Origin: Methylocystis sp.
GTDB lineage: Bacteria > Pseudomonadota > Alphaproteobacteria > Rhizobiales > Beijerinckiaceae
DNA: 61,508 nucleotides
NCBI RefSeq assembly: GCF_021731785.1
Contig: NZ_JAKFWS010000018.1
Location: forward strand, 1-61,508
Direction of reading: 5' to 3'
The position numbers and the translations under genes are program-made. How positions within the stretch are numbered: position 1 is the first letter of the stretch; every line of letters begins with the position of its first letter. Positions 12,373 to 42,041 of this stretch are shown here, in pieces. The notes beneath the pieces are model-generated. The model ran no database searches, was not told the origin of the DNA, and saw only the letters and a list, made by a program, of their open reading frames with translations.

Positions 12373-13773
12373 TCAAGGATGAGGTTCGGCGGCGTGATCG
12401 AGGCCAAGCGCCTTGAGGCTTGTCGCTAGAGAGCGCGTTTCCGCCTCTTCATAGAGCGCGAGTTCATCAACGACCGGCGCGCCGAGCACCGCCTCGAAGG
12501 CGCGTTGGTCGGCGCGCTCGATCAAATCTTCCGCGCGTTGATCCCCGAGATTCGAGCGAAAAATGCCGGCGGCGCTGACCGGCAGGAAATCCTCGTAAAG
12601 GATCGGCTCGGCGCGCAGGGCTCCGGCCTGCAGAAGATCGTCCAGCGCCGGACGGGACGCCGGGTCTACTGCCTTCGCACTTGCTTCGGGAGAATAGCGA
12701 AAGAAAGCGAGCTTCTCGCCTCTCAAGGTCTCATCATCGTCGGGGAACGCCGCAAAGCGTCGGGTCAGCGCCGCATTGAAGGCAACCGCATTGGCGCCAT
12801 CTGTCGCGAGCGGAACCTCGGCCTGAGCCTCGGCGAGAAGCCTGTCGTAAAGCGCGCGTCCCTTTGCGGTCAGCGCGGCGCCTCTCTGTTCGATCTCGCC
12901 GAAGCGCGCGGCATGCGCGCCACGCCTCCGGCCGTCTTCCTCGATGAATTCGACGGGCTCGGGGCGCGCCTTGAAGCTCGTCTGGCGCAGGAGGATGGGA
13001 CAGCGGCGACGCGGCGGCCCTTCGATGATCGCTTTAGGACTCATGCCTTTTGCCGCCATCGCCGCGTGCACGGCGTCGATATCGAGCGCATGCAAGGTGA
13101 GATGGTTGATATGCGGCCCTTTGAAGCAAACAATGTCGGCGAGCAGCGGATGCGTCGCATAGAGCTTCTGATAGATGGCGGACGAGACTATCGCCAGCCC
13201 GTTCCAGCGGAACGTCTTTGTCGCTTCAACCACAAATTCGCGCGCCTCTTCGTCGTCGAACCCGCGCACTTCAAAGAGATCGATCAGCTCCCGACAGCGC
13301 AGCGTGAAAATGTCACGCTGCGCGAGAATCTTCGCGGCGATCTCGCGCGCTTTCGCGTCAACGATCAGATCCAGTCTGAGAAGCGAGGCGAAGATCCGAA
13401 ACGGGCACGCCCGCATCGCAGCTTCGCCGATCGGCCGGAATGCGGTCGAATGCACGGGAAGTCCGGCGACCGACAAATCGTAATAGCCGACCGGCGCCAT
13501 CCCCATGATCGCGAACAGCCGGAGCAGCATCGACAATTCTTCGGCCGTCCCGACGCGAATGGCGCCATGGCGCTCGATGTCGAGTCGCTCGAATTCGCCG
13601 CTTTGGCGTAGACGGCGCTTGAGCGGCAAGTCCTCGGCGAGCGCCTGCCGATTCAGCTCGGCGACGAGCGCTTTCATCGCGCGATACTGCGGCGCTTCGG
13701 CCTGATACATGTCCGAGATCGCCGAGGCGAACATCGCTCGAATGGCGTCGGCGGAAGCGGAAGATTCGTGCAT
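12373..13773 (-). CDS. hglS: 2-oxoadipate dioxygenase/decarboxylase (HglS/YdcJ, DUF1338)
   Basis: A 466-aa protein of the HglS/YdcJ family. The family converts 2-oxoadipate to 2-hydroxyglutarate with Fe(II) and oxygen in lysine catabolism. The hallmark stretch FKGPHINHLTLHALDID carries the family's metal-binding His, and the C-terminal YEDFLPVSAAGIFRSNL block is also typical. It reads in the same direction as the aldehyde dehydrogenase at 13855-15393, which belongs to the ALDH7 family of aminoadipate-semialdehyde dehydrogenases, so a lysine to 2-aminoadipate to 2-oxoadipate route is likely. A hydroxyglutarate dehydrogenase is not in the window. Confidence 0.85.
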   Translation of the reverse strand: MHESSASADAIRAMFASAISDMYQAEAPQYRAMKALVAELNRQALAEDLPLKRRLRQSGEFERLDIERHGAIRVGTAEELSMLLRLFAIMGMAPVGYYDLSVAGLPVHSTAFRPIGEAAMRACPFRIFASLLRLDLIVDAKAREIAAKILAQRDIFTLRCRELIDLFEVRGFDDEEAREFVVEATKTFRWNGLAIVSSAIYQKLYATHPLLADIVCFKGPHINHLTLHALDIDAVHAAMAAKGMSPKAIIEGPPRRRCPILLRQTSFKARPEPVEFIEEDGRRRGAHAARFGEIEQRGAALTAKGRALYDRLLAEAQAEVPLATDGANAVAFNAALTRRFAAFPDDDETLRGEKLAFFRYSPEASAKAVDPASRPALDDLLQAGALRAEPILYEDFLPVSAAGIFRSNLGDQRAEDLIERADQRAFEAVLGAPVVDELALYEEAETRSLATSLKALGLDHAAEPHP

Positions 13774-13854
13774 CTCAGCCCTGACCGATCGACTCTTGCT
13801 TCTCGTAACTTAAGTCGTCAGCGTCGCAAAATCACGGGGGCGACGACGCGAAAC

Positions 13855-15393
13855 CTAGGCCCCCAAATCGAATTTGACGCCCTGAGCCAGCGGCAACTCG
13901 CCCGAATAATTGATCGTGTTGGTGGCGCGGCGCATATAGGCCTTCCAGCAGTCGGACCCCGCTTCGCGGCCGCCGCCGGTGTCCTTCTCGCCGCCGAAAG
14001 CGCCGCCGATTTCGGCGCCGGACGGGCCGATGTTCACATTGGCGATACCGCAGTCCGAACCGCTCGCGGCCATGAAAAATTCCGCTTCATCGAGGCGCGC
14101 CGTGAAGATCGACGACGCCAGGCCATGCGCCACATCATTGTTCAGTCGAATTGCGTCCTCGAGGCTGCCGAACTTCATCACATAAAGGATGGGCGCAAAT
14201 GTTTCGCGCCGAACGACCTCCGTCTGGCCCGGCATGTCCACCAGCGCCGGACGCACATAGAAGGCGTCGGGATATTTTTCCGCAAGCAGGCGTTCCCCGC
14301 CGAAAACGACGCCCCCGGCGCCGCGCGCTTCGTCAAGCGCCGCGCTCATCGCCGCATAGGCGCTCTCGTCGATGAGCGGGCCGACGAGGGAGCCGCCGTC
14401 GCGGGGATCGCCGACCGGAACTGAGGCGTAGGCGCGCCGCAATCGGTCGAGTAGCTCCTCATGAACGTCTTCATGCACGATCAGGCGGCGCAAGCTCGTG
14501 CAGCGCTGGCCCGCCGTGCCCATCGCCGCGAAGGCGATTGCCCGCACCGCGAGGTCGAGCGGCGCGGAGGCGCAGACGATCGCGGCGTTGTTGCCGCCAA
14601 GCTCGAGAATCGATCGCGCAAAACGGCGCGCGAGGCGCGGCGCGACGGCGCGGCCCATGGCGGTCGAACCTGTCGCGGAAACCAGCCGAACCCGCGCGTC
14701 TTCGACCAGCGCCTCGCCGATCTCGCGCCCGCCGACGAGCAGGTTGGAAAGACCATCGGGCGCATCGCCGAAACGCGCGGCGGCGCGTTCCACCAGCGCC
14801 TGCGTCGCCAGCGCGACGAGCGGTGTCTTCTCCGAAGGCTTCCAGACAAGGGAGTTGCCGCAGACCAGCGCCAGCGCGGCGTTCCAGGCCCAGACGGCGA
14901 CGGGAAAGTTGAAGCTGGTGATGACGCCGGCGACGCCCAGCGGATGCCATGTCTCCATCATCCGATGGCCGCGGCGTTCGGTGGCGATGGTCAGGCCATG
15001 CAGTTGACGTGAGAGTCCGACGGCGAAGTCGCAGATATCGATCATCTCCTGAACTTCGCCGAGGCCCTCCGTCGTAATTTTCCCGGCCTCGATCGTGACG
15101 AGGCGCGCGAGCTCTGTCTTGGCCGCGCGCAGCTCCTCGCCCAGCAGGCGCACGAATTCGCCCCGGCGCGGCGCGGGGACGTTACGCCAGACCCGAAACG
15201 CAGCCTCGGCGCGCTCGATGGTCTGCTGCGCAATCGTTAAATCGGCGCTCTCCACATGCGCGATGATCTCGCCGGTGATCGGTGAACGCGTGGTCAGAGA
15301 CCCGCGCCTGAACCTGTCAGATTCGACTCCAAATTTTTCCAGAAGGGCCGCAGTTTCGGCGGCCACGTCGGCATGCAGAACGCGCGCCTCCAT
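13855..15393 (-). CDS. amaB: Aldehyde dehydrogenase, ALDH7 type (aminoadipate-semialdehyde dehydrogenase)
   Basis: A 512-aa NAD-dependent aldehyde dehydrogenase. It shows the catalytic Glu motif LELGGNNAAIV, the catalytic Cys in TAGQRCTSLRR, the folding motif ITSFNFPVAVWAWN and the ALDH7-like C-terminus GGGREAGSDCWKAYMRR. ALDH7 enzymes (AmaB/Pcd/antiquitin) oxidise 2-aminoadipate 6-semialdehyde from lysine. The ATG at 15393 is preceded by GGGAG; the frame stays open to 15552 but that extension has no conserved sequence and would run into the divergent aminotransferase gene. Its neighbour HglS acts later in the same pathway. Confidence 0.85.
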   Translation of the reverse strand: MEARVLHADVAAETAALLEKFGVESDRFRRGSLTTRSPITGEIIAHVESADLTIAQQTIERAEAAFRVWRNVPAPRRGEFVRLLGEELRAAKTELARLVTIEAGKITTEGLGEVQEMIDICDFAVGLSRQLHGLTIATERRGHRMMETWHPLGVAGVITSFNFPVAVWAWNAALALVCGNSLVWKPSEKTPLVALATQALVERAAARFGDAPDGLSNLLVGGREIGEALVEDARVRLVSATGSTAMGRAVAPRLARRFARSILELGGNNAAIVCASAPLDLAVRAIAFAAMGTAGQRCTSLRRLIVHEDVHEELLDRLRRAYASVPVGDPRDGGSLVGPLIDESAYAAMSAALDEARGAGGVVFGGERLLAEKYPDAFYVRPALVDMPGQTEVVRRETFAPILYVMKFGSLEDAIRLNNDVAHGLASSIFTARLDEAEFFMAASGSDCGIANVNIGPSGAEIGGAFGGEKDTGGGREAGSDCWKAYMRRATNTINYSGELPLAQGVKFDLGA

Positions 15394-15522
15394 TTCGACT
15401 CCCGATGATGGCCATGACTTATGCGGCTGGCGCCGCCCATCCCTTCTGCCTATGTATGCTTTAATCACGCAAATGTCCGCAGGCGCCTTTCTCATGTGGA
15501 TGCGCGCAAAAAGCTCTCGGAT

Positions 15523-16767
15523 ATGGATAGCTCGGCGTTTAGGAACTCGCACGTCGCCAGAAACTATGATCCGCTGCCCGTCATGCTCGCGCGCGGACAG
15601 GGCGCATATCTATGGGACGTGGAAGGCCGGCGCTACATCGACATGATGAGCGCCTATTCGGCGGTCAGCCTTGGTCACGCACATCCGCGCATTCTTGCCA
15701 CGCTTTCCGAGCAGGCGCAGCGGTTGGCCGTGCCTTCCCGCGCTTTTTGCGATGACAGGCTCGGCCCGTTTCTCGACGAACTGTGCAAAGTCACGGGGCT
15801 CGACGCCGCTCTGCCGATGAATAGCGGGGCTGAGGCTGTCGAGACGGCGATCAAGGCGGCCCGGCGCTGGGGTCACCGCGTCAAAGGCATCGCCGATCCG
15901 GAGATCGTCGTCGCCGACGGGAATTTTCACGGCCGCACCACGACGATCATCAGTTTCTCGTCGGAGAGCGAATATCGCGACGGGTTCGGTCCGTTCATGC
16001 CGGGGTTTCGCGCGGCGCGCTTTGGCGATCTCGCGGCGTTCGAAGCCGCCGTCACGCCTAATACAGCCGCCATTCTCGTCGAGCCGATCCAGGGCGAAGC
16101 GGGCGTCATCGTGCCGCCCGACGGCTGGCTCGCGGGGCTCCGCCGACTGTGCGACGAGCGCGGCGTCTTGCTGCTGCTCGACGAAGTTCAATCCGGGCTG
16201 GGGCGCAGCGGAACCTGGTTCGCCTTCGAACATGAGAAGGTCCTCCCCGATGGCGTCATGCTCGGAAAGGCGCTTGGCGGCGGCGTGCTGCCGGTTTCCG
16301 CCTTCGTCGCCAAGAGCGAAGTGATGGACGTGTTCACGCCTGGCTCGCATGGGTCGACCTTCGGCGGCAATACGCTCGCCGCCGCCGTCGGGCTCGAAGC
16401 GCTGCGCGTCATTCGCGACGAGCGGCTGGTCGAGCGCAGCCAGGCGCTCGGCGCGAGAATGCTGCAACGGCTGAATGCGATGCGCATGCCGGCGATCAGG
16501 GAGATTCGTGGACGCGGCCTATGGGCGGGCGTGGAGCTGGACCCACGCTATGCGAGCGCGCGAGAAGTGTGCGAGAGCCTGATCGACAGGGGCGTACTGA
16601 CGACCGCCACGCATCGCACCGTCGTTCGCCTGGCGCCGCCTTTCGTCATCTCTCAAGAAGACCTCGATCTGGCGCTCGACGCGGTCGAGGCGGCGATCTC
16701 GACATTTGACGCCCCGCGCGATGTCGGCGACGCGGCGGCAGTCGCCGACCAGCAACTCGAAGCGTAG
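15523..16767 (+). CDS. rocD: Ornithine-oxo-acid-type aminotransferase (class III)
   Basis: A 414-aa class III PLP aminotransferase resembling ornithine delta-aminotransferases: N-terminal ARNYDPLPV, MNSGAEAVETAIKAAR for phosphate binding, GNFHGRTTTIIS, LLLDEVQSGLGRSG with the PLP-contacting Asp, and the Schiff-base lysine in MLGKALGGGVLPVSA. The start at 15523 gives the usual family length; an upstream ATG at 15421 adds 34 unconserved residues. It is divergent from the ALDH7 gene across 129 bases, a probable shared control region. Ornithine is the default substrate, but the ALDH7/HglS context makes a lysine 6-aminotransferase role possible; this is inference. Confidence 0.82.
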   Translation: MDSSAFRNSHVARNYDPLPVMLARGQGAYLWDVEGRRYIDMMSAYSAVSLGHAHPRILATLSEQAQRLAVPSRAFCDDRLGPFLDELCKVTGLDAALPMNSGAEAVETAIKAARRWGHRVKGIADPEIVVADGNFHGRTTTIISFSSESEYRDGFGPFMPGFRAARFGDLAAFEAAVTPNTAAILVEPIQGEAGVIVPPDGWLAGLRRLCDERGVLLLLDEVQSGLGRSGTWFAFEHEKVLPDGVMLGKALGGGVLPVSAFVAKSEVMDVFTPGSHGSTFGGNTLAAAVGLEALRVIRDERLVERSQALGARMLQRLNAMRMPAIREIRGRGLWAGVELDPRYASAREVCESLIDRGVLTTATHRTVVRLAPPFVISQEDLDLALDAVEAAISTFDAPRDVGDAAAVADQQLEA

Positions 16768-16776
16768 CCGGCGCGG

Positions 16777-19224
16777 TCAGGCGCGAATGCGTTCGCCTTT
16801 GGGATCATAGAACGGCGAAAGAGAAACGGTCGCCGGCCAGCGCTCGCCAGCGATTTCGAGCTGATAGTCGCCCGAGAGAACAAATGTCGGATCGACGCCG
16901 TCGGGGTGACGAACGTAACCGTAGCCGATCGCCTTGCTGATCGAATAGCCATAGCCGCCGCTCGACAGCCAGCCGACGCGCGCGCCATTGCGATAAATGG
17001 TTTCGCGTCCCAATAGCGCGACGTCAGGATCGTCGACGGCGAAACCGGCGAGCAGGCGCGGCAAGGGCGCGGCGGCGGATTGAACGAGCGCTTCTCTGCC
17101 CTGAAAAGGCGCGCCGGACTTCATCTTGACAGCGAAGCCAAGGCCCGCCATCGGCGGCGTGTGATCGGGACCGATATCAGACCCCCAGGCGCGGTAGCCC
17201 TTCTCCAGACGAAGGGATTCGATCGCCCGGTAGCCGGCGTCGACAAGTCCGAATGGCGCGCCCGCCTCGACGAGCGCGTCATAGACCGAGACCGCGAAAT
17301 CGACAGGGATGTGAAGCTCCCAGCCCAGTTCGCCCACATAAGTGACGCGGATCGCCAGCGCCGGCGCGCCCGCCAGACGAATTTCGCGGGCGCTCATGAA
17401 AGGAAAGGCGACGTTCGAAAGATCATCGTCGCAGCAGGATTGCAGGATGTCGCGGGCGCGCGGTCCCATCAACGCCAGCACGGAATTCGCCGAGGTGACG
17501 TCGACGAGGGTTGCGTCCATGCCTTCGGGAATCGATCGCCTGATCCAATCGAAGTCATGCGTGCCGAAGGCTGTCCCGGTCACGACATAGAAGCGATCCT
17601 TCGCCAAGCGCGTGATCGTCAGGTCGCATTCAATGCCGCCTTTGGCGTTCAGCAACTGCGTATAGGCGACCGCGCCGGGCCGCTTGGCGACATCGTTCGC
17701 GGCGATCCAGGACAGCGCCGCCTCGGCGTCCTTGCCGATCACAAGCGCTTTGGCGAAGCTCGTCTGGTCGAAAAGCGCCGCCGTCTCCCGGCAGGCGCGA
17801 TGCTCTCGTCCGACGGCGTCGAACCATCCCGGCCTGCCGAAGGAATAACGATCCACCGGCGTTTCGCCGACGCTCACATTCGCGAACCAGTTCGGTCGTT
17901 CGAAACCCATTTTCTCGCCGAAGCACGCGCCTTTCGCCTTGAGCCGGTCATAGAGCGGCGAGCGCCGCAGCGGTCGTCCGGACGTAAACTCTTCGAAAGG
18001 CCAGGCGATGCTGTAGTGACGCGCATAGGCTTCGAGCGTCCGCACGCGCACCCAGGCAGGATCCCTGTGCGGCGCGCCGAAACGTCGGATGTCGACCGGC
18101 CAGAGATCGAAGGGCTGTTCGCCATCGGCCGCCCATTCGGCGAGCGCCATGCCGGCCCCGCCGGCAGAGGCGATGCCGAAGGCGTTGAAGCCGGCGCCGA
18201 CGAAGAAGTTTCGCACCTCCGGCGCTTCGCCGATCATCCAATTGCCGTCGGGCGTGAAGCTTTCGAGGCCGTTGATCATCTGCTTGACGCCGGCCCCGGC
18301 GAGCGCCGGCACGCGGCCGAGCGCAAGATTCATGATCGGCTCGAAATGATCCCAGTCGTCTTCAAGAAGCCGAAAGGCGAAATCCTCGGGAACGACGCCC
18401 GATGACCAGGGCACGGGATTGGGTTCATAGCCGCCCATGACGAGGCCGCCGACCTCCTCCTTGTAGTAGGTCAGCCGATCCGGATCGCGCAGAGTCGGCA
18501 AATCGCTAGTCACGCCGTCGATTTTTTCGGTCACGATATATTGATGGTGAACCGCGGAGAGCGGAACGGCGACGCCGGCGCGCGCGGCGAGCGGCTGCGT
18601 CCACAGACCGGCGCAGAGCACGAGCTTTTCGCAAGCAACGGCGCCGCGATTGGTGACGACCCCGCGTACGCGTTGGTTCTCGATGATGAAATCCGTGACG
18701 GCGACGCCTTCGACAAGCCTTGCGCCGGCGAGCCGCGCGCCTTTCGCCAGCGCCTGCGTGATATCGGAAGGATTCGCTTGGCCGTCAGTGGGCAGGAAGG
18801 CCGCGCCGACGACGTCATCGACATTCATCAGCGGCCAGAGCGCCTGCGCCTCCTTGGCGCCAAGGAGCTGCATTTCGAGGCCGAAACTTCGCGCAGAAGT
18901 CGCCTGTCGCTTGACCTCGATCCATCGATCGGCGTTGCAGGCGAGGCGCAGGCCGCCATTGCGCCGCCAGCCGGTGGCATAGCCTGTCTCTGCTTCGAGC
19001 CGATCGTAAAGTTCGACCGAATAGCCAAGCAGCTTGGTGATATTGGCGTTGGTCCGCAACTGTCCGATCAATCCGGCGGCATGCCACGTCGAACCCGATG
19101 AGAGTTGATGGCGTTCAATGAGCAGCGTTTCGACGCCGCGTTTGGCGAGGTGGTAGGCGACCGAGCAGCCGACGATGCCCCCGCCAACGACGACAATCTG
19201 TGCGCTTCGCGGAAGGTCGGTCAT
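16777..19224 (-). CDS. FAD-dependent oxidoreductase fused to a GcvT-like folate domain
   Basis: An 815-aa protein of the dimethylglycine/sarcosine dehydrogenase family. The N-terminus has the FAD-binding motif IVVVGGGIVGCSVAYHLA, the middle contains the DAO fold ending near GAGFNAFGIASAGGAG, and residues from about 430 on form an aminomethyltransferase (GcvT)-like domain with LRLEKGYRAWGSDIGPDHTP. Such enzymes demethylate N-methylated amino acids and pass the one-carbon unit to tetrahydrofolate. Its ATG at 19224 overlaps the stop of the kinase-like gene in an ATGA arrangement, so the two are translationally coupled. The longer frame to 19341 is rejected for that reason. Confidence 0.85.
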   Translation of the reverse strand: MTDLPRSAQIVVVGGGIVGCSVAYHLAKRGVETLLIERHQLSSGSTWHAAGLIGQLRTNANITKLLGYSVELYDRLEAETGYATGWRRNGGLRLACNADRWIEVKRQATSARSFGLEMQLLGAKEAQALWPLMNVDDVVGAAFLPTDGQANPSDITQALAKGARLAGARLVEGVAVTDFIIENQRVRGVVTNRGAVACEKLVLCAGLWTQPLAARAGVAVPLSAVHHQYIVTEKIDGVTSDLPTLRDPDRLTYYKEEVGGLVMGGYEPNPVPWSSGVVPEDFAFRLLEDDWDHFEPIMNLALGRVPALAGAGVKQMINGLESFTPDGNWMIGEAPEVRNFFVGAGFNAFGIASAGGAGMALAEWAADGEQPFDLWPVDIRRFGAPHRDPAWVRVRTLEAYARHYSIAWPFEEFTSGRPLRRSPLYDRLKAKGACFGEKMGFERPNWFANVSVGETPVDRYSFGRPGWFDAVGREHRACRETAALFDQTSFAKALVIGKDAEAALSWIAANDVAKRPGAVAYTQLLNAKGGIECDLTITRLAKDRFYVVTGTAFGTHDFDWIRRSIPEGMDATLVDVTSANSVLALMGPRARDILQSCCDDDLSNVAFPFMSAREIRLAGAPALAIRVTYVGELGWELHIPVDFAVSVYDALVEAGAPFGLVDAGYRAIESLRLEKGYRAWGSDIGPDHTPPMAGLGFAVKMKSGAPFQGREALVQSAAAPLPRLLAGFAVDDPDVALLGRETIYRNGARVGWLSSGGYGYSISKAIGYGYVRHPDGVDPTFVLSGDYQLEIAGERWPATVSLSPFYDPKGERIRA

Positions 19225-20111
19225 GCTGCTTCCATCTGCTGGAACGCCGCCCAGGCGCCCTCGAAGCGACTCATATTTTGATCGGAGTAAGCGACATAGT
19301 CGAAATCGATCGCCGATCGGCTTTCCGACACAAAACTCCACAGCGCTTCACGCAAGAGCGAGGCGCAAAGCATCGCTTTGAACCGCCGGCGCAGCGAATC
19401 GGTGAGCGCCGTTTCGAAATATTCCTCAAGCATCGCGTCGTCTTCCGCGGCGTCGAAGCCATTGTTCGATGAGAGCCCGCCAAGATCGAACAGCGGCGTG
19501 TTCCAGCCGGCATAATCCCAATCGACGAGCCAGAGGCGTCGTCCGTCATCAATGAAATTGGCGGCGAGGAGATCATTATGGCCGAAAACGAGATTGATCG
19601 GGCCGACGGCCTTTTCCAGGACCTCGCTCGCCGCGAGCAAACGCGGCAATTGCGGCGTAATTCGACTTCGGTCCTCAAGGAGCGTGTGGACATAGTCGCG
19701 GATGACATGAAAGACGTTGAACGCCAGTGTCGGCCCGCGCAAATGCCGCGCTACCTCGCGATGAACGCGCTTGACGAGATCGACGCAGCGCTGACGATTT
19801 GCGCGCACGTCCTGCGCTTCGTAAGTACGGCCGGAAATAAAGTCGAGCGCCAGAGCCATAGGCGCCGAATAAAGAACTTGCGGCGACACGCCCGCAGCGC
19901 CCGCGGCCCTGCTCGCCGCCAATTCGTTAAAGCGCATCACGCCATGAACGGGAATGTCGCCGCCCAGGCGAACGACGACGCGACGGTCGCCGTCCGTGAC
20001 GATGTAGTTCTTGTTGGTGATGCCGCCGAGCAAGGGCGCGATCTCGATCGGCCCCCGCCAGAACGGAAGCGCGCGTATCAGAGTTTCAGGGTCTGCGGTA
20101 TGGGCTGACAT
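19221..20111 (-). CDS. Choline/ethanolamine kinase-like phosphotransferase
   Basis: A 296-aa kinase of the APH/ChoK fold. The Brenner motif is visible as FGHNDLLAANF, followed by LWLVDWDYAGWNTPLFDL, the metal-binding Asp region; GGITNKNYIV is the nucleotide loop. The family phosphorylates choline, ethanolamine or similar small alcohols. The ATG at 20111 has GGAG upstream; an earlier ATG at 20213 adds 34 unconserved residues. It is coupled by ATGA to the demethylating oxidoreductase and divergent from eutB, so the neighbourhood concerns amino-alcohol or methylated-amine use. The actual substrate is unknown. Confidence 0.82.
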   Translation of the reverse strand: MSAHTADPETLIRALPFWRGPIEIAPLLGGITNKNYIVTDGDRRVVVRLGGDIPVHGVMRFNELAASRAAGAAGVSPQVLYSAPMALALDFISGRTYEAQDVRANRQRCVDLVKRVHREVARHLRGPTLAFNVFHVIRDYVHTLLEDRSRITPQLPRLLAASEVLEKAVGPINLVFGHNDLLAANFIDDGRRLWLVDWDYAGWNTPLFDLGGLSSNNGFDAAEDDAMLEEYFETALTDSLRRRFKAMLCASLLREALWSFVSESRSAIDFDYVAYSDQNMSRFEGAWAAFQQMEAA

Positions 20112-20269
20112 CGGCTCCGGCGGCGCGAAACAAACTTCGACTTTGCTAGTATATGCGGGCCGGGCGCAAAGGCCATGGGCCGCGACGGCGCTGGGGAAAA
20201 CCATAGGCCGCAAGGTGACATGTTCGCATCGGCGCCCTAGCCTGAGAAACGGTCGTTCGAGGTCGAGCC

Positions 20270-21649
20270 ATGTATGGGACGACGATTCGCGGAACGCGCT
20301 ACGGGTTTCGCGATCTCAAATCGCTGATGGCGAAGGCGACTCCTCTGCGCTCGGGAGATTGCCTCGCTGGAATCGCTGCGACGAGCGCGGCGGAGCGCGT
20401 CGCCGCGCAGATGGCCCTCGCCGATCTCCCGCTGAGCGTGTTCTTGAACGAATCGCTCGTTCCCTATGAGGAAGACGAAGTCACCCGACTGATCCTCGAC
20501 AGTCACGATCGACAGGCCTTTGCGCCGATCGCTTCGCTGACCGTCGGCGAATTTCGCGACTGGCTTCTCTCTGAGGCCGCCGACGCGAATTCGCTCGCCG
20601 CTCTGACGTTCGGACTCACGCCAGAAATGGCGGCGGCGGTCTCGAAAATCTGCCGCAACCAGGACCTCATTCTGATCGCCGCCAAGCGGCGCGTCGTCAC
20701 CAGGTTTCGCAATACGCTCGGCCTGCGCGGACGACTATCGTCGCGCATCCAGCCCAACCATCCGACCGACGACGCGCGGGGGGTTCTCGCGAGCGCGATC
20801 GACGGGCTTCTGCTCGGCAATGGCGACGCCGTCATCGGCGTCAATCCAGCGTCCGACAGTCCGGAACAATGCTACGAACTTTTGCGCCTTCTCGACGAAT
20901 TGCGTGAGACGCTCAACATTCCCACCCAGACCTGCGTGCTCGCTCATGTCACGACGACGCTGCAGCTGATGAAGCGGCAGGCGCCGGTTGATCTGGTTTT
21001 CCAGTCGATCGGCGGAACCCAGGCCGCCAATTCAAGCTTCGGGATTGATCTGGCTTTGTTGCGCGAGTCGCGGGAGGCGGCGCTCGCCCTAAAGCGTGGG
21101 ACGATCGGCGACAATGTCATGTATTTCGAAACCGGCCAGGGCAGCGCGCTTTCAGCCAACGCCCATTGGAATTGCGACCAGCAGACGCTGGAGGCGCGCG
21201 CCTATGGCGTCGCGCGGATGTTCGAGCCTCTGCTGATCAATACGGTCGTTGGATTTATCGGTCCCGAATATCTTTTCGATGGCAAGCAGATCACGCGGGC
21301 GGCGCTTGAAGACCACTTCTGCGGCAAGCTGCTTGGACTGCCGATGGGCTGCGACGTGTGTTACACCAATCACGCTGAGGCCGACCAGAACGATATGGAC
21401 GATCTGCTGACGCTGCTCGCCGTCGCCGGCGTCAACTACGTTATGGGCGTTCCCGGCGCGGATGACGTCATGCTGAATTACCAAAGCACCTCGTATCATG
21501 ACGTGCTCGCCGTCCGGCGCATGCTCAATCTGGCGCCGGCGCCGGAATTCGCGCAATGGTTTGCGGACGTCGGTTTGACCGACGCGCGCGGCGAATTGCA
21601 GTCGCAGGCGCTTCCTGCATCCTTTTCGCCGCTTCTCGAAAGAGCGTGA
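20270..21649 (+). CDS. eutB: Ethanolamine ammonia-lyase, large subunit
   Basis: A 459-aa protein close to the usual length of EutB (about 453 aa). It forms the TIM-barrel active site that, with adenosylcobalamin, splits ethanolamine to acetaldehyde and ammonia. Conserved blocks include the N-terminal GTTIRGTRYGFRDLKSLMAKA, RFRNTLGLRGRLSSRIQPNHP, FETGQGSALSANAHWNCDQQTLEARAYG and MGCDVCYTNHAEADQNDMD. The small subunit follows after two bases. No microcompartment shell genes, eutA reactivase or acetaldehyde dehydrogenase appear in the window, pointing to the simple proteobacterial form of the pathway. The region upstream shows no riboswitch that I can recognise. Confidence 0.95.
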   Translation: MYGTTIRGTRYGFRDLKSLMAKATPLRSGDCLAGIAATSAAERVAAQMALADLPLSVFLNESLVPYEEDEVTRLILDSHDRQAFAPIASLTVGEFRDWLLSEAADANSLAALTFGLTPEMAAAVSKICRNQDLILIAAKRRVVTRFRNTLGLRGRLSSRIQPNHPTDDARGVLASAIDGLLLGNGDAVIGVNPASDSPEQCYELLRLLDELRETLNIPTQTCVLAHVTTTLQLMKRQAPVDLVFQSIGGTQAANSSFGIDLALLRESREAALALKRGTIGDNVMYFETGQGSALSANAHWNCDQQTLEARAYGVARMFEPLLINTVVGFIGPEYLFDGKQITRAALEDHFCGKLLGLPMGCDVCYTNHAEADQNDMDDLLTLLAVAGVNYVMGVPGADDVMLNYQSTSYHDVLAVRRMLNLAPAPEFAQWFADVGLTDARGELQSQALPASFSPLLERA

Positions 21650-21651
21650 GA

Positions 21652-22443
21652 ATGGCGGATCGTCGCCCGGCACTTTTCGACATGATTTTGAAACTGCGTT
21701 CGGCGACGCCGGCGCGAATTTTCCTGCCGCGCGCCGGCGCGGGGCTGACCACGCGCGCCACTTTGGATTTTCAGCTGGCGCACGCCGAGGCGCGCGACGC
21801 GGTCGAAGAGCGGCTCGACGTCGACACGCTCTTCGACGAACTGACGGCGCGCGGGTTGACGGCGGTTTGCGTCAGGAGCGCCGCGCGTGATCGGCGCAGC
21901 TTCCTGCTGCGCCCGGACCTTGGCCGAAGACTGGATGACGAGTCCCGCGAGCGGCTGAAATCTTTCGCAGGCGTTTACGACCTTGCATTCGTCATTGCCG
22001 AAGGACTGTCCGCGCGCGCCATCGCCCGGCATGCGCTTCCGATCCTTGAAAGGACGCTCTCATCCCTCGATCGAACATCGTGGAAGATCGCGCCGATCGT
22101 GCTCGCCGAACAGGGGCGCGTCGCGCTTGGCGACGACATCGGCGAAACGCTTGGCGCCAGACTCGTGGCGGTCCTCATCGGCGAGCGGCCCGGGCTCTCC
22201 TCGCCTGACAGCCTGGGCGTCTATCTGACTTTTGCGCCGCGCGTCGGCCGCACCGACGCCGAGCGCAATTGCCTGTCGAATATCCGCCCGCAGGGCCTCG
22301 CCTATGACGAAGCGACCCGAAAGCTGCTTTATCTTTGCAACGAAGCTCGCCGGCGGGGGCTGACCGGCGTCGAACTCAAGGACGAAGCCGAGACGCTTGC
22401 GCCGGAAGGGCCGCACGCGATCGACGTCAAGAATGAGCCGTAA
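21652..22443 (+). CDS. eutC: Ethanolamine ammonia-lyase, small subunit
   Basis: A 263-aa EutC subunit, which contacts the cobalamin cofactor at the interface with EutB. Typical features are LRSATPARIFLPRAGAGL at the N-terminus, the acidic stretch followed by FVIAEGLSARAIARHALP, VLIGERPGLSSPDSLGVYLTF and RNCLSNIRPQGL near the C-terminus. The ATG at 21652 lies two bases after the eutB stop; the frame extends upstream inside eutB but the extension is not conserved. Confidence 0.94.
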   Translation: MADRRPALFDMILKLRSATPARIFLPRAGAGLTTRATLDFQLAHAEARDAVEERLDVDTLFDELTARGLTAVCVRSAARDRRSFLLRPDLGRRLDDESRERLKSFAGVYDLAFVIAEGLSARAIARHALPILERTLSSLDRTSWKIAPIVLAEQGRVALGDDIGETLGARLVAVLIGERPGLSSPDSLGVYLTFAPRVGRTDAERNCLSNIRPQGLAYDEATRKLLYLCNEARRRGLTGVELKDEAETLAPEGPHAIDVKNEP

Positions 22444-22498: not shown

Positions 22499-22523
22499 GG
22501 AACTATCGTCATCGCCATGAGTT
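22499..22523 (+). promoter_or_regulatory. EcfG-type general-stress promoter upstream of the three-gene set
   Basis: GGAAC at 22499-22503, a 16-base spacer and AGTT at 22520-22523 match the GGAAC-N16/17-CGTT pattern of alphaproteobacterial EcfG promoters in all but one base. The element ends 33 bases before the methyltransferase start at 22557, a normal promoter distance. The same pattern recurs six more times in the window in front of stress genes. Confidence 0.55.
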
Positions 22524-22556
22524 GAAACCTCTCTTGCGCTGGGCGTTCGCTGACCG

Positions 22557-23549
22557 ATGCAAACGGATCTCTACTGTGATGACGCTGCTGTCGTTAGCCC
22601 CCGTGCTCTGAGCGCAGCGGATGAAGCTCTTCTGTGGCTGGGCGGCTTTCTTCGGGATCAGAGCTATCGCTTCACCACGACGACCCCATTGACCCACAGC
22701 CGTGTCGTGCAGCGTGGGGCGGTTGACGGCGCATCTCTGATGCGCGTCTTCGGGTGGAGCCTGCCTTTCTCCGCGAGCGATCTGCCCGCAGAGGTGCTGC
22801 AGGCCCTTGCGTTGGCGAAGGCGTTGGCGCATTCCAACGGCCTGTTGCGCAGCAAGGTGCGATTCTCGACGCTTAACGACCAGATTTATGCGCATTCGGC
22901 CTTTCCTACCGAAGCAGCCGATTCAGTTTTCTTTGGGCCTGACACTTACCGCTTCGCGCGCTGCATCGAGTCAGTCCTCAATTCGCAGCCGCCCTCATAT
23001 TCCGCCCAGCGACTCATCGACATCGGATGCGGCAGCGGCGCAGGCGGAATTCTGGCCGCAAACCTCTTGAGGCCCGGCGTCGAGCTTCTGCTCGCCGACA
23101 TCAATCCAGAAGCCGTGCGATTTGCCCGCATCAATGCGATGCTTAACGGGATGACGCGAACTCAAGCGATTCATAGCGATCTTTTCCAGAATGCGCGCGG
23201 CCCGTTCGACTATATCGTCGCCAATCCCCCCTACCTCGTTGATGACTTCCAGCGGCTCTATCGGCACGGAGGCGGCGAACTTGGCATCGAGCTTTCTCTC
23301 GACATTGTCAGGGAAGCTATCCCCCATCTCTCGCGGAACGGACGGCTGCTTCTCTATACAGGCTCGCCGATCATCGGAGGGGTCGACCAGTTCCTTGCCG
23401 CCATGAAGCCGCTTCTCGACGCTTCCCCAGTGACGTTCGATTACGAAGAGGTGGATCCCGACGTTTTTGGCGAGGAGCTGGACCGGCCCGTCTATCGGCG
23501 CGTTGACCGCATCGCTGCGGTCTTTCTCAACATTAAGAAAGAAGGGTGA
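22557..23549 (+). CDS. SAM-dependent methyltransferase with NPPY motif
   Basis: A 330-aa class I methyltransferase. Residues 1-150 form a separate N-terminal domain; motif I is IDIGCGSGAGG (154-164), followed by the acidic LLADINPEAV and by ANPPY (222-226). NPPY is typical of enzymes that methylate amide or exocyclic amino nitrogens, such as PrmB/PrmC/RlmG relatives. It is followed after three bases by a di-iron oxidase-like gene and then by an ATP-grasp ligase. The ordinary housekeeping homologues are not found in such company, so this one probably acts on a small molecule or peptide in a pathway with those two genes. The ribosome binding site is weak. Confidence 0.8.
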   Translation: MQTDLYCDDAAVVSPRALSAADEALLWLGGFLRDQSYRFTTTTPLTHSRVVQRGAVDGASLMRVFGWSLPFSASDLPAEVLQALALAKALAHSNGLLRSKVRFSTLNDQIYAHSAFPTEAADSVFFGPDTYRFARCIESVLNSQPPSYSAQRLIDIGCGSGAGGILAANLLRPGVELLLADINPEAVRFARINAMLNGMTRTQAIHSDLFQNARGPFDYIVANPPYLVDDFQRLYRHGGGELGIELSLDIVREAIPHLSRNGRLLLYTGSPIIGGVDQFLAAMKPLLDASPVTFDYEEVDPDVFGEELDRPVYRRVDRIAAVFLNIKKEG

Positions 23550-23552
23550 CAT

Positions 23553-24401
23553 ATGCGGGACCTCGATTGGACCGCTCTGGCTCCGGCGCTCAGCGGCGCG
23601 GCCTTTGAGCGCTTCCAGAGAGAACTCTGCCGACGCAACGGCGCCCGGCTTGAGCCCTCAACGCCTTCCGGCGACTGGCGTAAGGATGTGAAAGACAGCG
23701 CCGCTCTCGCCGAGGCGGAGATCGCTTATGTGGAGAGCGTTCGTGAGGCGATCGCTCCGCTCGTCGCCGATATCCCGAGCGACGCCGACGCCTTTCTGGC
23801 TTGGTATGAGAAGCTTGCCGAGAATGGGCCTGGCCAAAACGATCCGCTGTTCCCATGGCTCGAGCGACAGGCGAGCTTCGATGAAATGAAATGGCTCCTC
23901 GAACAAGAAGTGTCCGGCGAAGCAGGGTTCGACGATCTCGTCGCCCTCACGCAGATCAAGATGCCTCATATTCCCAAGCTCGAAATGGCGTGCAATTACT
24001 GGGATGAAATGGGCCGAGGCAATGCGCAGGGCATGCACGGACCCATGCTCTCCCGGCTCGCCGCCTATTTTGGCGCAGACGCCAGGCCAGAACGCGTCTG
24101 CCCCGAGTCGCTTGCGCTCGGCAACACCATGGTGGCGCTCGCCAGCAATCGTCACTACGCCTTCCATTCTATCGGGGCGCTGGGCGCAATCGAGATGACG
24201 GCGCCAGGACGCGCGATCCAAGTCGAGCGCGGACTGCGGCGTCTAAAAGTGCCGGGCAAACAGCGACAGTATTTTTCGCTTCATGCGATTCTCGACGTCA
24301 AACATTCCGAAGCGTGGAATCGCGAAGTTCTGCGTCCTCTTGTGAAGGAAGATTCCTGTCGCGCGCAGGCGATCGGCGAAGGCGCCGTTCTTCGGCTATG
24401 A
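23553..24401 (+). CDS. Haem-oxygenase-like di-iron oxidase/oxygenase (iron-containing redox enzyme family)
   Basis: A 282-aa all-helical protein of the HDO superfamily. Candidate iron ligands are E119, E152 and H162 within WDEMGRGNAQGMH, E214, and the third-helix set H244, D248 and H251 in HAILDVKH, which is the HxxxDxxH pattern of this family. Members include UndA, BesC and SznF, which use Fe2 and oxygen to cleave or oxidise unactivated substrates. It is preceded by GAAGG and lies three bases after the methyltransferase. All ligand positions appear to be present, so I expect an active enzyme. The substrate cannot be inferred beyond the gene context. Confidence 0.82.
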   Translation: MRDLDWTALAPALSGAAFERFQRELCRRNGARLEPSTPSGDWRKDVKDSAALAEAEIAYVESVREAIAPLVADIPSDADAFLAWYEKLAENGPGQNDPLFPWLERQASFDEMKWLLEQEVSGEAGFDDLVALTQIKMPHIPKLEMACNYWDEMGRGNAQGMHGPMLSRLAAYFGADARPERVCPESLALGNTMVALASNRHYAFHSIGALGAIEMTAPGRAIQVERGLRRLKVPGKQRQYFSLHAILDVKHSEAWNREVLRPLVKEDSCRAQAIGEGAVLRL

Positions 24402-24481
24402 CATGGCGCGCGATGCTTCGAGCGCTACCGGCGTCACTTCGGCCTGGAAGCGGCGCCACGGAAAGCGGCCTAGGAGCATCC

Positions 24482-25840
24482 ATGCGGGTTCTGGGGATTG
24501 GAGACTATTGCGATCTCGCCGCGCTCTATCTTCGCCTTTCCGCGGCAGGGCATGACGTCAAAGTTTTCATCGACGCGCCGCTTTGTCGAGACATTCTGAA
24601 CGGCATGGTCGCCAAAACGGACGACTGGCGTTCCGTGCTGCAATGGGTGAAGGCAGCGGACAGCGAAGGAATTATCCTCTTTGAAAACGTCGCATGCGGG
24701 GGTTTGCAAGACCGGTTGCGTCGAGACGGATTCAACGTCATTGGCGGAAGCGCCTTCGGCGACCGGCTTGAAATCGACCGAGCCTATGCGCAGAGCCTTC
24801 TCGCCGAGCTCGGCCTTTCCACCGCGACGACCAGGCGCTTTTCGAGTAGGCAGGACGGCTTGCGTTTTCTTCGTGAGCGCCCTGGACGCTATGTCCTGAA
24901 ATTCAATGCGCCGGACTTGGCGCATCGCAACTTCGTCGGCGGTCTCGCCGACGGACGCGACATATCCGCACTCCTTCAAAATCTCCCTGTCAATCCATCG
25001 GACGATGCGGGCTTCATCCTCATGGATTTCCTCGAGGGCGTCGAGATGGGAGTCGGCGCTTATTTCGACGGCGAGAAATTTCTGATGCCGGCCTGTCTCG
25101 ACTGGGAGCACAAGCGCTTTTTCCCGGGCGATCTTGGAGAGCTGACGGGAGAGATGGGCACGGTCGCCACATTCGAGCATTCAACTCTCTTTTTCGAAAA
25201 AACTCTCGCGAGGATCGAGCCGCTGCTCAGGCGCCACGGCCATTGCGGCTATGTGAACCTCAACACCATCGTCAATGAACAAGGTATCTGGCCGCTCGAA
25301 TTCACCTGCCGGTTCGGCTATCCCGGCTTCGCCGTTCTGTCGCCGTTACAGCGAACTTCTTGCCCGGAATTGTTTAAAGCAATGGTCCGCCGCGACAAGG
25401 ATCGTCTGGCTGTCCATGAGGGATTCTCAGTCGGAGTCGTGCTGACCGTTCCGCCTTTCCCCTATTCGCGACGACAAACGCAAGAGCCGATCGGCATGCC
25501 GATCCTCTTGGACGGAGCATTGTCGCGCAAGGACGAAGAAAATCTGCACTATTGCGAAGTGGCTCTCGACAACGGCCAGCTTGTCACCGCCGGCGCCTAT
25601 GGCTGGACGGCGGTGGCGACAGGCAGTGGGCGAACGATTGAGAGCGCCAGACGTAACGCCTATCGTTTGATCGACCGCGTGCACATTCCCAACATGCGTT
25701 TCCGGCGCGACATCGGAGAGCGGCTGATCTCGGCGGATTACGCCAAAATGAAATCGCTTGGACTGCTGGGAGACGAGTTCAGATCTCCTTGTCGCCCCCC
25801 GCCGACCCACGCGCCCGCCCTTCATGCAACGCGCGGCTAG
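24482..25840 (+). CDS. PurD-like ATP-grasp ligase
   Basis: A 452-aa ATP-grasp protein that resembles phosphoribosylglycinamide synthetase: N-terminal MRVLGIGDYCDLA, the ATP-binding region RYVLKFNAPDLAHRNFVGG, MDFLEGVEMGVGAYF, and LEFTCRFGYPGF near the metal ligands. Its gene partners and the divergent N-terminus argue against purine synthesis and for ligation of a carboxylate to an amine in a small-molecule pathway. The ATG at 24482 is preceded by GGAGCATCC. An alternative in-frame ATG at 24398 overlaps the stop of the upstream gene (ATGA) and would add 28 residues. It converges with pdeM, overlapping by four bases. Confidence 0.78.
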   Translation: MRVLGIGDYCDLAALYLRLSAAGHDVKVFIDAPLCRDILNGMVAKTDDWRSVLQWVKAADSEGIILFENVACGGLQDRLRRDGFNVIGGSAFGDRLEIDRAYAQSLLAELGLSTATTRRFSSRQDGLRFLRERPGRYVLKFNAPDLAHRNFVGGLADGRDISALLQNLPVNPSDDAGFILMDFLEGVEMGVGAYFDGEKFLMPACLDWEHKRFFPGDLGELTGEMGTVATFEHSTLFFEKTLARIEPLLRRHGHCGYVNLNTIVNEQGIWPLEFTCRFGYPGFAVLSPLQRTSCPELFKAMVRRDKDRLAVHEGFSVGVVLTVPPFPYSRRQTQEPIGMPILLDGALSRKDEENLHYCEVALDNGQLVTAGAYGWTAVATGSGRTIESARRNAYRLIDRVHIPNMRFRRDIGERLISADYAKMKSLGLLGDEFRSPCRPPPTHAPALHATRG

Positions 25841-40386: not shown

Positions 40387-41189
40387 CGACCTTTGGAGCC
40401 GCGCTTTTCCGCATCGATGCTCTTGCGCAACGCATCCACGATATTGACGACATTGTTCTGGCGCGCCGGGGCCGGCTTCATGCCGCGCGCGGGTTTGCGC
40501 TCCTTCCTTTTTCCGGAAATGATGTCGAGCAGCTGGTCTTGAACGGGATCATGAGCCATCGAAGGACTCCAATGAGTCTTGCGCTCCTCGATCAATTTCG
40601 AAATCAGGTCGAGCGCTTTCGCATTTGGCGTCTCGGCGCGGATGTTGTCGAGATAGTCTTTAGGATCGCGCACTTCGTCGGCAAAGCGTAACGTCCATAA
40701 CACCAAACCCCTATCGCGCGGCTCGACCATCACCGCGCGCTCGCGCCGATACATGACGAGTCGCGACAGGCCAACCGTATTCGTCGCCTTCATCGCGTCG
40801 CGAATGACGGAAAACGCCTCGACGCCGACCGGATCGTCAGGAACGAGATAGTGGGGCTTGTCGAACCATATCCAGTCAACGCTCGCCGCCGGAGCGAAAG
40901 TATTAATATCGATGGTTCGTGTGCTTTCGAGGCTGAGAGCGTCGAGTTCTTCATCTTCAAGGAGCACGTAATCATTTTCGCCGCGCGGATAGCCCTTCAC
41001 CGCATCGTCTTCGCCAATCGGCCCGCCAGTGACCGAGTCGACATATTGGCTGACGACGCGGTTGCCGGTGTCTCGATTAAGGATGTGGAATCGAACCTTT
41101 TCGCCTTCCGTGGCCGCCGGCGTCATCGCGACCGGGCAAGTCACGAGCGAAAGCTTCAAATAGCCCTTCCAGAATGATCGTGGCGCCAC
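40383..41189 (-). CDS. ku: Ku protein, copy 2
   Basis: A 268-aa Ku, beginning SFWKGYLKLSLVTCPVAM, with NRDTGNRVVSQYVDS and a conserved tail ending in VVNIVDALRKSIDAEKR. It differs clearly from copy 1, and the strongly basic Ala/Lys tail is missing. The GTG start at 41189 is preceded by AGAGGGA. A perfect EcfG-type promoter lies 34 bases upstream. In Sinorhizobium meliloti several ku genes exist and some are under general-stress control, so specialised Ku proteins are a sensible reading. Confidence 0.95.
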   Translation of the reverse strand: MAPRSFWKGYLKLSLVTCPVAMTPAATEGEKVRFHILNRDTGNRVVSQYVDSVTGGPIGEDDAVKGYPRGENDYVLLEDEELDALSLESTRTIDINTFAPAASVDWIWFDKPHYLVPDDPVGVEAFSVIRDAMKATNTVGLSRLVMYRRERAVMVEPRDRGLVLWTLRFADEVRDPKDYLDNIRAETPNAKALDLISKLIEERKTHWSPSMAHDPVQDQLLDIISGKRKERKPARGMKPAPARQNNVVNIVDALRKSIDAEKRGSKGR

Positions 41190-41222
41190 CGCAGGTCCCT
41201 CTAGAGCAGGGAGTTCTCCAAT

Positions 41223-41247
41223 AACGCGCTATCGAGCCCATCGTTCC
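41223..41247 (-). promoter_or_regulatory. Perfect EcfG-type promoter of ku copy 2
   Basis: Read on the minus strand: GGAAC (41247-41243), 16 bases, CGTT (41226-41223). This is an exact match to the EcfG consensus. The start codon follows 33 bases later. Confidence 0.7.
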
Positions 41248-41413
41248 GCTTGCGCCCAAGCGGTCAGAACTGAAGAACTAAGAACAACCTTTTCGCTCTT
41301 CGCGGGAACGTTGGCGACTCGCATATTGTTGAATTCAAGCAAAAGGGCTGCGTGGGCGCTGTTGTTATTGAAGCGGGCGGCTCCCATATCCGACCGCTAT
41401 CCAAGGCTGCAAA

Positions 41414-41623
41414 ATGAACAAAAAGGCTAGAAAAGAAACCCAGAGAGATCTGCGGAGGATGGATGCGGGAGGCTGCGACGCGGCGTCCAAGCTGTCGTAT
41501 CTTGGGCTCAATGCGCAACTGACTGCCGAACTGCGACGTTTTTACGAGACCAGCGTCTCGGAGCCGATTCCTGATTCTTTGCGCAGTTTGCTTGCGCAAC
41601 TTTCTCGTTCACCAGCCGGTTAG
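41414..41623 (+). CDS. nepR: NepR-type anti-sigma factor
   Basis: A 69-aa protein whose core, LNAQLTAELRRFYETSVSEPIPDSL, followed by LLAQL, matches the two-helix signature of NepR. NepR holds the general-stress sigma factor EcfG inactive until phosphorylated PhyR releases it. No phyR or ecfG gene is adjacent, which is unusual for the first nepR copy and suggests a second, orphan copy. Upstream, GGAAC at 41304 is followed after 18 bases by TGTT, a poor EcfG match. No strong Shine-Dalgarno is visible. Confidence 0.72.
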   Translation: MNKKARKETQRDLRRMDAGGCDAASKLSYLGLNAQLTAELRRFYETSVSEPIPDSLRSLLAQLSRSPAG

Positions 41624-41745
41624 ATGAGGTGGTGACGCGTTTGATCAAACTCGCGGGCGCAGATGAGAATGAAACCATCAACACAACAAAAAATGATTGC
41701 CTGTCTTCACAACAGGCAATCACCAAAGTTCAATTATCGAACGAG

Positions 41746-41919: not shown

Positions 41920-41955
41920 TTCGGCTCTCCTTTCAACGGAGACGGATAAGGAAAC

Positions 41956-41980: not shown

Positions 41981-42041
41981 AGAAATGACGGCAAAGCACC
42001 ATTCTGAGCTCACTTGGCCAGAAGGTGGTGAAAGCGCGCCG

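What the first reader, a model, noticed from the sequence alone, without database searches (positions are those of the whole stretch)
22499..25840. Undescribed methyltransferase-di-iron oxidase-ATP-grasp gene set under a stress-type promoter
Three adjacent genes encode an NPPY methyltransferase, a haem-oxygenase-like di-iron enzyme with all candidate ligands (E152, H162, H244, D248, H251) and a PurD-like ATP-grasp ligase. No carrier protein, PKS or NRPS gene is near. HDO enzymes such as UndA, BesC and SznF do unusual oxidative chemistry; ATP-grasp ligases join amines and carboxylates. An EcfG-type element (GGAAC-N16-AGTT) lies 33 bases before the first gene, so the product may be a stress metabolite. 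I know of no described pathway with this combination, but absence from memory is not proof.
Basis: partly seen in the sequence, partly recalled or inferred. Interest (0 to 1): 0.8.

Follow-up and report, generated by a model that had tools for sequence, protein, structure and literature searches.

The report
Stress-controlled N-oxygenase, methyltransferase and ligase operon
A methane-eating bacterium carries three side-by-side genes that probably make an unknown small stress compound, by methylating and oxidising a nitrogen atom and joining the result to a partner molecule; the oxidising enzyme recurs under the same stress switch in many related bacteria.

Summary
It is no chance neighbourhood: of the 80 best HDO relatives kept, 35 have the MT in the fetched stretch and 14 also the ATP-grasp gene, in rearranged orders, from Methylocystis to Bradyrhizobium and Myxococcales. 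In 13 of 15 further genomes this MT sits beside a second, larger HDO. The HDO's nearest solved relative is HrmI, which N-oxygenates lysine; the MT's best fold matches are N-methyltransferases. The stress promoter is supported: 8 of 8 Methylocystis copies keep it; 33 of 78 HDO operons against 29 of 699 control genes have it, as do 47 of 49 Sphingomonas HDO genes; one published EcfG-dependent gene is probably this HDO. Best reading: a general-stress pathway to an N-methylated, N-oxygenated amide; substrate and product unknown. Against: this strain's HDO lacks its last ~25 residues, many HDO genomes lack MT and ligase, and 7 of 13 testable trios lack the element. HDO plus ATP-grasp clusters were surveyed in 2026, so this is a new variant.

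The parts
22499..22523 (+). EcfG-type promoter element GGAAC-N16-AGTT of the operon
   Evidence: Sequence; GGAAC and AGTT columns invariant in 8 of 8 Methylocystis upstream regions; family-wide enrichment
22557..23549 (+). NPPY class I methyltransferase (MT), predicted small-molecule or peptide N-methyltransferase
   Evidence: Pfam MTS 9.6e-16; model pLDDT 91.8; the 12 best fold matches are AerE (TMq 0.67-0.71) and the gentamicin N-methyltransferase (TMq 0.56-0.60); below the cut-off of all 25 NCBIfam families shown of 29
23553..24401 (+). Haem-oxygenase-like di-iron enzyme (HDO), predicted N-oxygenase of the HrmI type; reading frame ends early after residue 282
   Evidence: PF14518 2.3e-35; HrmI best by sequence, 4.4e-23 single and 1.9e-41 profile, and by fold of a full-length relative, TM 0.83; ligands invariant; length compared with relatives
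24482..25840 (+). PurD-like ATP-grasp ligase (ATPG), not the housekeeping PurD
   Evidence: GARS_A and GARS_C; TIGR00877 111.8 bits against cut-off 288; the genome's own PurD scores 533.5; EFT and RFGYPG invariant in 10 sequences where the PurD structures shown have EFN and RFGDPE

Best explanation
The three genes form one operon of the alphaproteobacterial general stress response (sigma factor EcfG). The MT most likely puts a methyl group on a nitrogen of a small amino-acid-like substrate. The HDO, a di-iron enzyme of the HrmI type, uses O2 to oxidise a nitrogen of that substrate (N-hydroxyl up to nitro level). The PurD-like ATP-grasp enzyme spends ATP to make an amide between a carboxylate and an amine, giving the final conjugate. 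Shown: gene content, operon layout, conserved clustering, ligand set, closest relatives, promoter conservation and enrichment. Inferred: N-methylation, N-oxygenation, amide formation and their order. Unknown: substrate and product; a basic amino acid (lysine, arginine or ornithine type) is my first guess.
For: Clustering: of 80 HDO loci, MT in 35 and ATPG in 14, with at least four gene arrangements. The trio label on the HDO tree needs 7 changes, at least 3 forced by well-supported branches, against 15.0 when shuffled. Baseline, own genome included: in 398 sampled genomes of the phylum MT occurs in 18, this HDO in 6, ATPG in 1. MT also sits beside a second, larger HDO family in 13 of the 15 genomes of that sample that have MT but not this HDO (two of the 13 confirmed as PF14518 by Pfam), 5 of the 13 with a GCS2-family ligase in the stretch. 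N-oxygenation: HrmI is the top sequence and fold match, followed at a distance by SznF, FlcD and RohS, of which SznF and RohS are N-oxygenases; HrmI oxidises the lysine side-chain amine to nitro (PMC13108848, passages). N-methylation: the 12 best fold matches are AerE and the gentamicin N-methyltransferase. Stress control: element kept in 8 of 8 Methylocystis copies; 33 of 78 HDO operons against 29 of 699 control genes, odds ratio 16.9, p 5e-20, two scrambled motifs 0 of 78; 47 of 49 Sphingomonas HDO genes. EcfG-dependent gene #0787 of S. melonis Fr1 (log2 -3.2; PMC6599016 Table 1, passages) has an element that differs in 1 of 25 letters from the HDO promoter of L145, with the same 54-base gap if the paper counts from the element's end; of 145 same-length elements in all loci (overlapping loci counted twice) the closest one outside an HDO promoter differs in 8.
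Against: 43 of 80 HDO loci have neither MT nor ATPG nor cyanophycin genes in the stretch; I searched the 29 genomes of 30 of these loci and only 9 have an MT anywhere, so the HDO often works without it. Those 9 unlinked MT genes have no EcfG element (0 of 9). Of 13 testable trio loci the element was found at the presumed operon start in 6, all Methylocystaceae; L028, L032, L037, L050, L062, L066 and L077 lack it there, although L037 has one before its MT, and in L032 the stretch tested lies inside an upstream gene. L046 could not be tested. The reverse-complement motif is also mildly enriched (7 of 78 against 22 of 699, p 0.02). The element before the window's trio ends AGTT, not the canonical CGTT, which is not enriched in the window. 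The HDO of this strain lacks its conserved C-terminus. HDOs that share ligands can do different chemistry (PMC13108848, section 11). PrmC and other methyltransferases also align over most of the MT, with lower scores. In the ATP-grasp protein an Asn of the PurD metal site (role recalled) is Thr. The identity of #0787 with this HDO is inferred; the exact element was found in 0 of 34 genomes searched.
Confidence: 0.6

Rival explanations
1. The module is a stress-controlled small-molecule pathway, but the HDO does other HDO chemistry (desaturation, carbon-carbon cleavage, nitrile or ring formation) and the MT works on oxygen or carbon.
For: HDOs with the same ligand set do very different reactions (PMC13108848 sections 4 and 11); identity to HrmI is only 23-24% in the structural match.
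Against: HrmI is far ahead of all other solved HDOs (1.9e-41 against 9e-6 for SznF), and the next matches include N-oxygenases; the best MT fold matches are N-methyltransferases.
Confidence: 0.25
2. The enzymes modify a protein or peptide: MT like AerE, the SET-domain protein as a lysine methyltransferase, and the HDO oxidising methylated side chains.
For: AerE acts on a peptide; a SET-domain gene (PF00856 1.2e-15) lies in 4 of the 14 trio loci and is annotated beside the plasmid trio of Sphingomonas daechungensis.
Against: SET was not found in 10 of 14 trio loci, some of them short contigs; the ATP-grasp, cyanophycin and GCS2 neighbours suggest free amino acids. Small peptide genes were not sought.
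Confidence: 0.1
3. The genes serve nitrogen storage or turnover linked to cyanophycin-type amides rather than a specialised metabolite; ATPG replaces cyanophycin synthetase.
For: Cyanophycin synthetase plus a cyanophycinase-type peptidase (PF03575) lie near the HDO in 9 of 80 loci, 7 of these with MT and 6 with an Asparaginase_2 (isoaspartyl peptidase type) gene, in both Caulobacteraceae and Sphingomonadales, and not with ATPG.
Against: Zero overlap among 14 and 9 of 80 is not significant (about 1.6 expected); most HDO loci have neither; no cyanophycin genes were found in the Methylocystis loci.
Confidence: 0.1
4. Ordinary: three unrelated enzymes that happen to be adjacent (a PrmC-like MT, an orphan oxidase, a PurD paralogue).
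For: Each belongs to a large common superfamily.
Against: Recurrence in rearranged orders over distant hosts; rarity of ATPG (1 of 398); scores far under PurD and PrmC cut-offs.
Confidence: 0.03

Closest known systems
HrmI / BelK (hormaomycin and belactosin; lysine to 6-nitronorleucine)
   Same: Closest solved HDO by sequence and fold; all six ligands align. Reaction from PMC13108848 and PMC10764440 passages.
   Different: 23-24% identity in the structural match; neighbours here are MT and a PurD-like ligase. Cyclopropanase partner not searched for. Substrate not shown.
Mangotoxin mbo cluster (HDO MboA with ATP-grasp ligases MboC, MboD)
   Same: HDO beside ATP-grasp amide ligases (PMC13185094, part 1 and passages).
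   Different: MboA makes an alkyne and has redox partner MboB; the word methyltransferase does not occur in that main text.
Streptozotocin SznF (N-methylarginine, then N-hydroxylation)
   Same: Methylation followed by HDO N-oxygenation would be the same logic (SznF reaction from PMC13108848 passages; the methylating enzyme SznE is recalled).
   Different: SznF has 3H/4C ligands and a cupin domain; only a distant match here (9e-6).
PurD (phosphoribosylamine-glycine ligase)
   Same: ATP-grasp architecture with C domain.
   Different: Far under the PurD cut-off; altered EFN and RFGDPE motifs; a true PurD is elsewhere in the genome.
AerE (aeronamide N-methyltransferase; asparagine side chain, recalled) and gentamicin N-methyltransferase
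   Same: The 12 best fold matches of the MT, aligned over nearly its whole length.
   Different: 15-20% identity; different clusters.

Membership tests
HDO superfamily (PF14518) | Pfam match over gathering score | tested here: met
   122.4 bits against 28.9
HDO superfamily (PF14518) | 3H/3C di-iron ligand set | tested here: met
   E152, H162, E214, H244, D248, H251 invariant in 40 sequences and aligned with HrmI; metal binding itself not tested
HrmI/BelK-type N-oxygenase | HrmI is the closest solved HDO by sequence and fold | tested here: met
HrmI/BelK-type N-oxygenase | Oxidises lysine side-chain amine | not testable with these tools
   Needs an assay; HrmI substrate contacts were not available to me
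HrmI/BelK-type N-oxygenase | HrmJ/BelL cyclopropanase partner gene | not tested
   No search with HrmJ was made
PurD | TIGR00877 score over cut-off | tested here: not met
   111.8 against 288
PrmC/HemK glutamine methyltransferase | NCBIfam equivalog score over cut-off | tested here: not met
   66.5 against 199.1
EcfG general stress regulon | GGAAC-N16/17-(C/G)GTT-type element at promoter distance, conserved | tested here: met
   GGAAC and GTT kept 8 of 8, with A before GTT instead of C or G; family enrichment; consensus from PMC4814048 and PMC7083833 passages
EcfG general stress regulon | NepR-type regulator in the genome | tested here: met
   5 NepR matches over cut-off, one in the window; ecfG and phyR not searched
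EcfG general stress regulon | EcfG-dependent transcript | tested here: inconclusive
   No data for Methylocystis; S. melonis #0787 probably is the HDO
HDO plus ATP-grasp peptide clusters (mangotoxin type) | HDO adjacent to an ATP-grasp amino-acid ligase | tested here: inconclusive
   Adjacent ATP-grasp gene present; that it ligates amino acids is not shown

The most novel reading that the evidence does not exclude
The HrmI-type HDO is a widespread, unrecognised member of the alphaproteobacterial general stress regulon, and with MT and one of three kinds of amide ligase (PurD-like ATP-grasp, cyanophycin synthetase, or GCS2 with the larger HDO) it makes a new class of stress metabolites: N-methylated, N-oxygenated amino-acid amides, a chemistry so far known from antibiotics and toxins but here used for the cell's own protection.
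Probability: 0.3. Interest if true: 0.82.

Novelty: new variant of a known kind. Interest (0 to 1): 0.62.

Why it matters
The roughly dozen HDOs characterised so far come mostly from antibiotic, toxin, metallophore and cofactor pathways (PMC13108848, section 4). Finding one with a stress-sigma element before 47 of 49 Sphingomonas gene copies suggests that this oxidative chemistry also serves ordinary stress survival. It gives a directly testable gene (an 'EcfG-dependent hypothetical protein'), a defined partner set, and a route to an unknown metabolite without NRPS or PKS, which standard cluster finders can miss.

Tried and rejected
Rejected: PurD paralogue, PrmC/HemK, pABA synthase of the CADD type (only E 0.5 to 9pj4), phage gene (no PHROGs match for HDO and ATPG, one weak one for MT). 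A plasmid search with ATPG gave 56 records, 20 of them listed; three of the 20 are closer than 30% identity (54.6, 43.9 and 34.7%), and one of these three has the trio. SznF-like 3H/4C ligands considered: E119 and E123 are invariant here, but E123 is not kept in the HrmI alignment, so 3H/3C is preferred.

Ethanolamine ammonia-lyase (eutBC) and the lysine-catabolic genes upstream were found beside the HDO only in Methylocystis among the loci tested; treated as neighbours, not parts.

Contig C158 of the same assembly holds a second trio (MT 75%, HDO 86%, ATPG 80% identical) with a different sequence downstream; it is about 78% identical in DNA to the window and to two other Methylocystis alike, so contaminant or old second copy could not be decided.

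Led nowhere: text searches with PF14518 or with methyltransferase plus iron-containing redox enzyme; a search joining PF14518, the product name and EcfG terms found 75 papers, of which the 15 listed hold neither HDO term; exact search for the S. melonis element in 34 genomes. All four motif variants tried on the 78 operons were enriched (odds ratios 9.1 to 16.9); the strongest is quoted in the summary. Two of 80 loci (L046, L083) have too little upstream sequence and were dropped there. Control genes in that test include operon-internal genes, which lowers the control rate; the scrambled motifs guard against this.

Full report
What is there. Three + strand genes lie at 22557-23549 (MT), 23553-24401 (HDO) and 24482-25840 (ATP-grasp, ATPG), with eutBC just upstream. 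The window is contig C13 of a 4.2 Mb assembly, 99.93% complete with 3.12% contamination; its nearest named relatives are Methylocystis. Pfam gives MTS, Haem_oxygenas_2 and GARS_A/GARS_C. In the relatives the HDO frame ends a few bases before ATPG and MT ends 3 bases before the HDO, so this is a compact operon.

A defect in this strain. The window's HDO stops after residue 282. The 7 other Methylocystis copies read (L002-L008) go on for about 25 residues, and this tail carries positions conserved at 90% or more in 40 sequences (G285, C288, F289, Y292, R293); in the model of a full-length relative the last helix runs from 269 to 296. The frame after the stop is otherwise open, so this is either a recent loss or an assembly error. 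Claims about function therefore rest on the relatives.

The module recurs. In these 80 loci: HDO alone 43; HDO+MT 13; HDO+MT+ATPG 10; the same plus a SET-domain gene 4; HDO with cyanophycin synthetase and cyanophycinase 9 (7 of them with MT, 6 with an isoaspartyl-peptidase-type gene); one more HDO+MT locus (L063) had a weak cyanophycin-synthetase hit that I do not count. Many loci are cut by contig ends, so these are lower bounds. One of the 14 ATPG hits (L046) is a 43-residue stretch at a contig end. Gene order varies: MT-HDO-ATPG in Methylocystis and Bradyrhizobium; ATPG-MT-HDO, and ATPG-SET-HDO with MT opposed, in Rhodospirillales; MT-HDO with ATPG opposed in Myxococcales. A Sphingomonas plasmid also has MT, HDO, ATPG and SET; its HDO and ATPG match in two pieces each. 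On a tree of 88 HDOs the trio label (16 rows) needs 7 changes, at least 3 of them forced. I take a chance neighbourhood as excluded.

How common. Own genome included, the HDO is in 9 of 101 near relatives and 6 of 398 genomes sampled from the phylum; MT in 18 of 398; ATPG in 1 of 398 and 1 of 397 of the order, each time the window's own. The three searches of 398 appear to use the same draw. Among 29 genomes whose HDO stands without MT nearby, 9 have an MT elsewhere; I found neither HDO kind beside it and no stress element before it.

A second, independent pairing. Of the 15 genomes in the phylum sample that have MT but not this HDO, 13 have MT beside a larger protein family (439-557 residues); two members tested are PF14518 (1e-26 and 4e-27), and the one searched has no solved relative by sequence. 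Five of the 13 also have a GCS2-family ligase in the stretch. So one MT family partners two HDO subfamilies, with three kinds of probable amide-forming ligase in the neighbourhood. I know of no description of this; my text searches did not show one, but most subscription papers are not in that library.

What the enzymes resemble. HDO: HrmI is first by single sequence (4.4e-23), by profile (1.9e-41) and by fold of a confident model (pLDDT 92.2; TM 0.83), and all six ligands align; then SznF, FlcD and RohS. HrmI and BelK oxidise the lysine side-chain amine to a nitro group (PMC13108848, passages; PMC10764440, passages). MT: model pLDDT 91.8; the 12 best fold matches are AerE and the gentamicin N-methyltransferase; PrmC (TMq 0.52) and others follow. 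ATPG: nearest are PurD enzymes but 111.8 bits against a cut-off of 288, with RFGYPG for RFGDPE and EFT for EFN; the genome's true PurD scores 533.5.

The promoter. GGAAC-N16-AGTT is invariant in its two boxes in 8 of 8 Methylocystis upstream regions. Before HDO operons, GGAAC-N15/18-GTT within 300 bases occurs in 33 of 78, against 29 of 699 other genes in the same loci (p 5e-20); two scrambled motifs 0 of 78; the reverse-complement motif 7 of 78 against 22 of 699. With the strict CGTT form the figures are 15 of 78 and 15 of 699. Related genomes are not independent, so the p value is a guide only. In S. melonis Fr1, gene #0787, annotated hypothetical, has a log2 ratio of -3.2 in an ecfG mutant (PMC6599016, passages). 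Its element differs in one letter of 25 from that of the HDO gene in L145, and the distance of 54 bases is the same if counted from the element's end; among 145 same-length elements in all loci the best outside HDO promoters differs in 8. I infer that #0787 is the HDO. Of 13 testable trio loci only the 6 of Methylocystaceae have the element at the presumed operon start, so stress control belongs to the HDO in many lineages but not demonstrably to every trio.

Context in the window. The same window holds a NepR-like gene, ku, ligD and csbD; canonical GGAAC-N16-CGTT elements lie at 41223-41247 and 42368-42392 on the - strand, upstream of the likely starts of ku and csbD. Papers report ku (PMC6599016) and csbD and ku-ligD (PMC7083833) as EcfG targets (passages). 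So EcfG-type control is plausible in this genome.

Mechanism. I propose MT first, HDO second, ATPG last, by gene order and by analogy with N-methylarginine and SznF. The substrate is open. A basic amino acid fits HrmI, the cyanophycin neighbourhoods and, weakly, the lysine-catabolic genes 7-10 kb upstream (HglS and piperidine-6-carboxylate dehydrogenase over their cut-offs), which among the loci tested are neighbours only in Methylocystis.

Novelty. PMC13185094 (part 1 of the text and passages) counts 1447 HDOs near an ATP-grasp ligase and at least 25 clusters; this one may be among them. What seems new here is the MT partnership across two HDO subfamilies, the HrmI affinity, and above all the stress-sigma control.

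Noticed in passing
window 37825-42432: A stress and repair island: ligD, ku, a NepR-like gene at 41414-41623 and csbD, with canonical EcfG-type elements at 41223-41247(-) before ku and 42368-42392(-) before csbD.
   Followed up: partly
window 12376-22443: HglS, L-piperidine-6-carboxylate dehydrogenase, a class III transaminase, a DAO-GcvT fusion, an APH-type kinase and eutBC: a lysine and amine catabolic run, also beside the trio in the other Methylocystis loci as far as these reach.
   Followed up: partly
window 24399-24401: Early stop in the HDO frame; full-length copies exist in the 7 other Methylocystis copies read.
   Followed up: partly
L002 (contig C158 of the same assembly): Second complete trio with eutC upstream and a different sequence downstream (looks like the start of a TPP enzyme, by eye); contaminant or old second copy.
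   Followed up: partly
L035, L043, L044, L053, L058, L080, L086, L098, L100 (and L020): Cyanophycin synthetase, cyanophycinase-type peptidase and often an isoaspartyl-peptidase-type gene near HDO and MT; the main text of the cyanophycin gene survey PMC10206079 has no word beginning with oxygenase or iron-containing.
   Followed up: partly
L124-L136: A larger HDO family (439-557 residues; one member searched had no solved relative) beside the same MT, 5 of 13 with a GCS2 ligase.
   Followed up: partly
L033, L048, L049, L052, L053, L058, L062, L080: A KatE-type catalase within the stretch of 8 of 80 HDO loci, some with a Zn-alcohol dehydrogenase, as in stress-gene islands.
   Followed up: no
L032, L037, L050, L066, L103: Small SET-domain protein (about 140 residues) beside the trio; role unknown.
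   Followed up: partly
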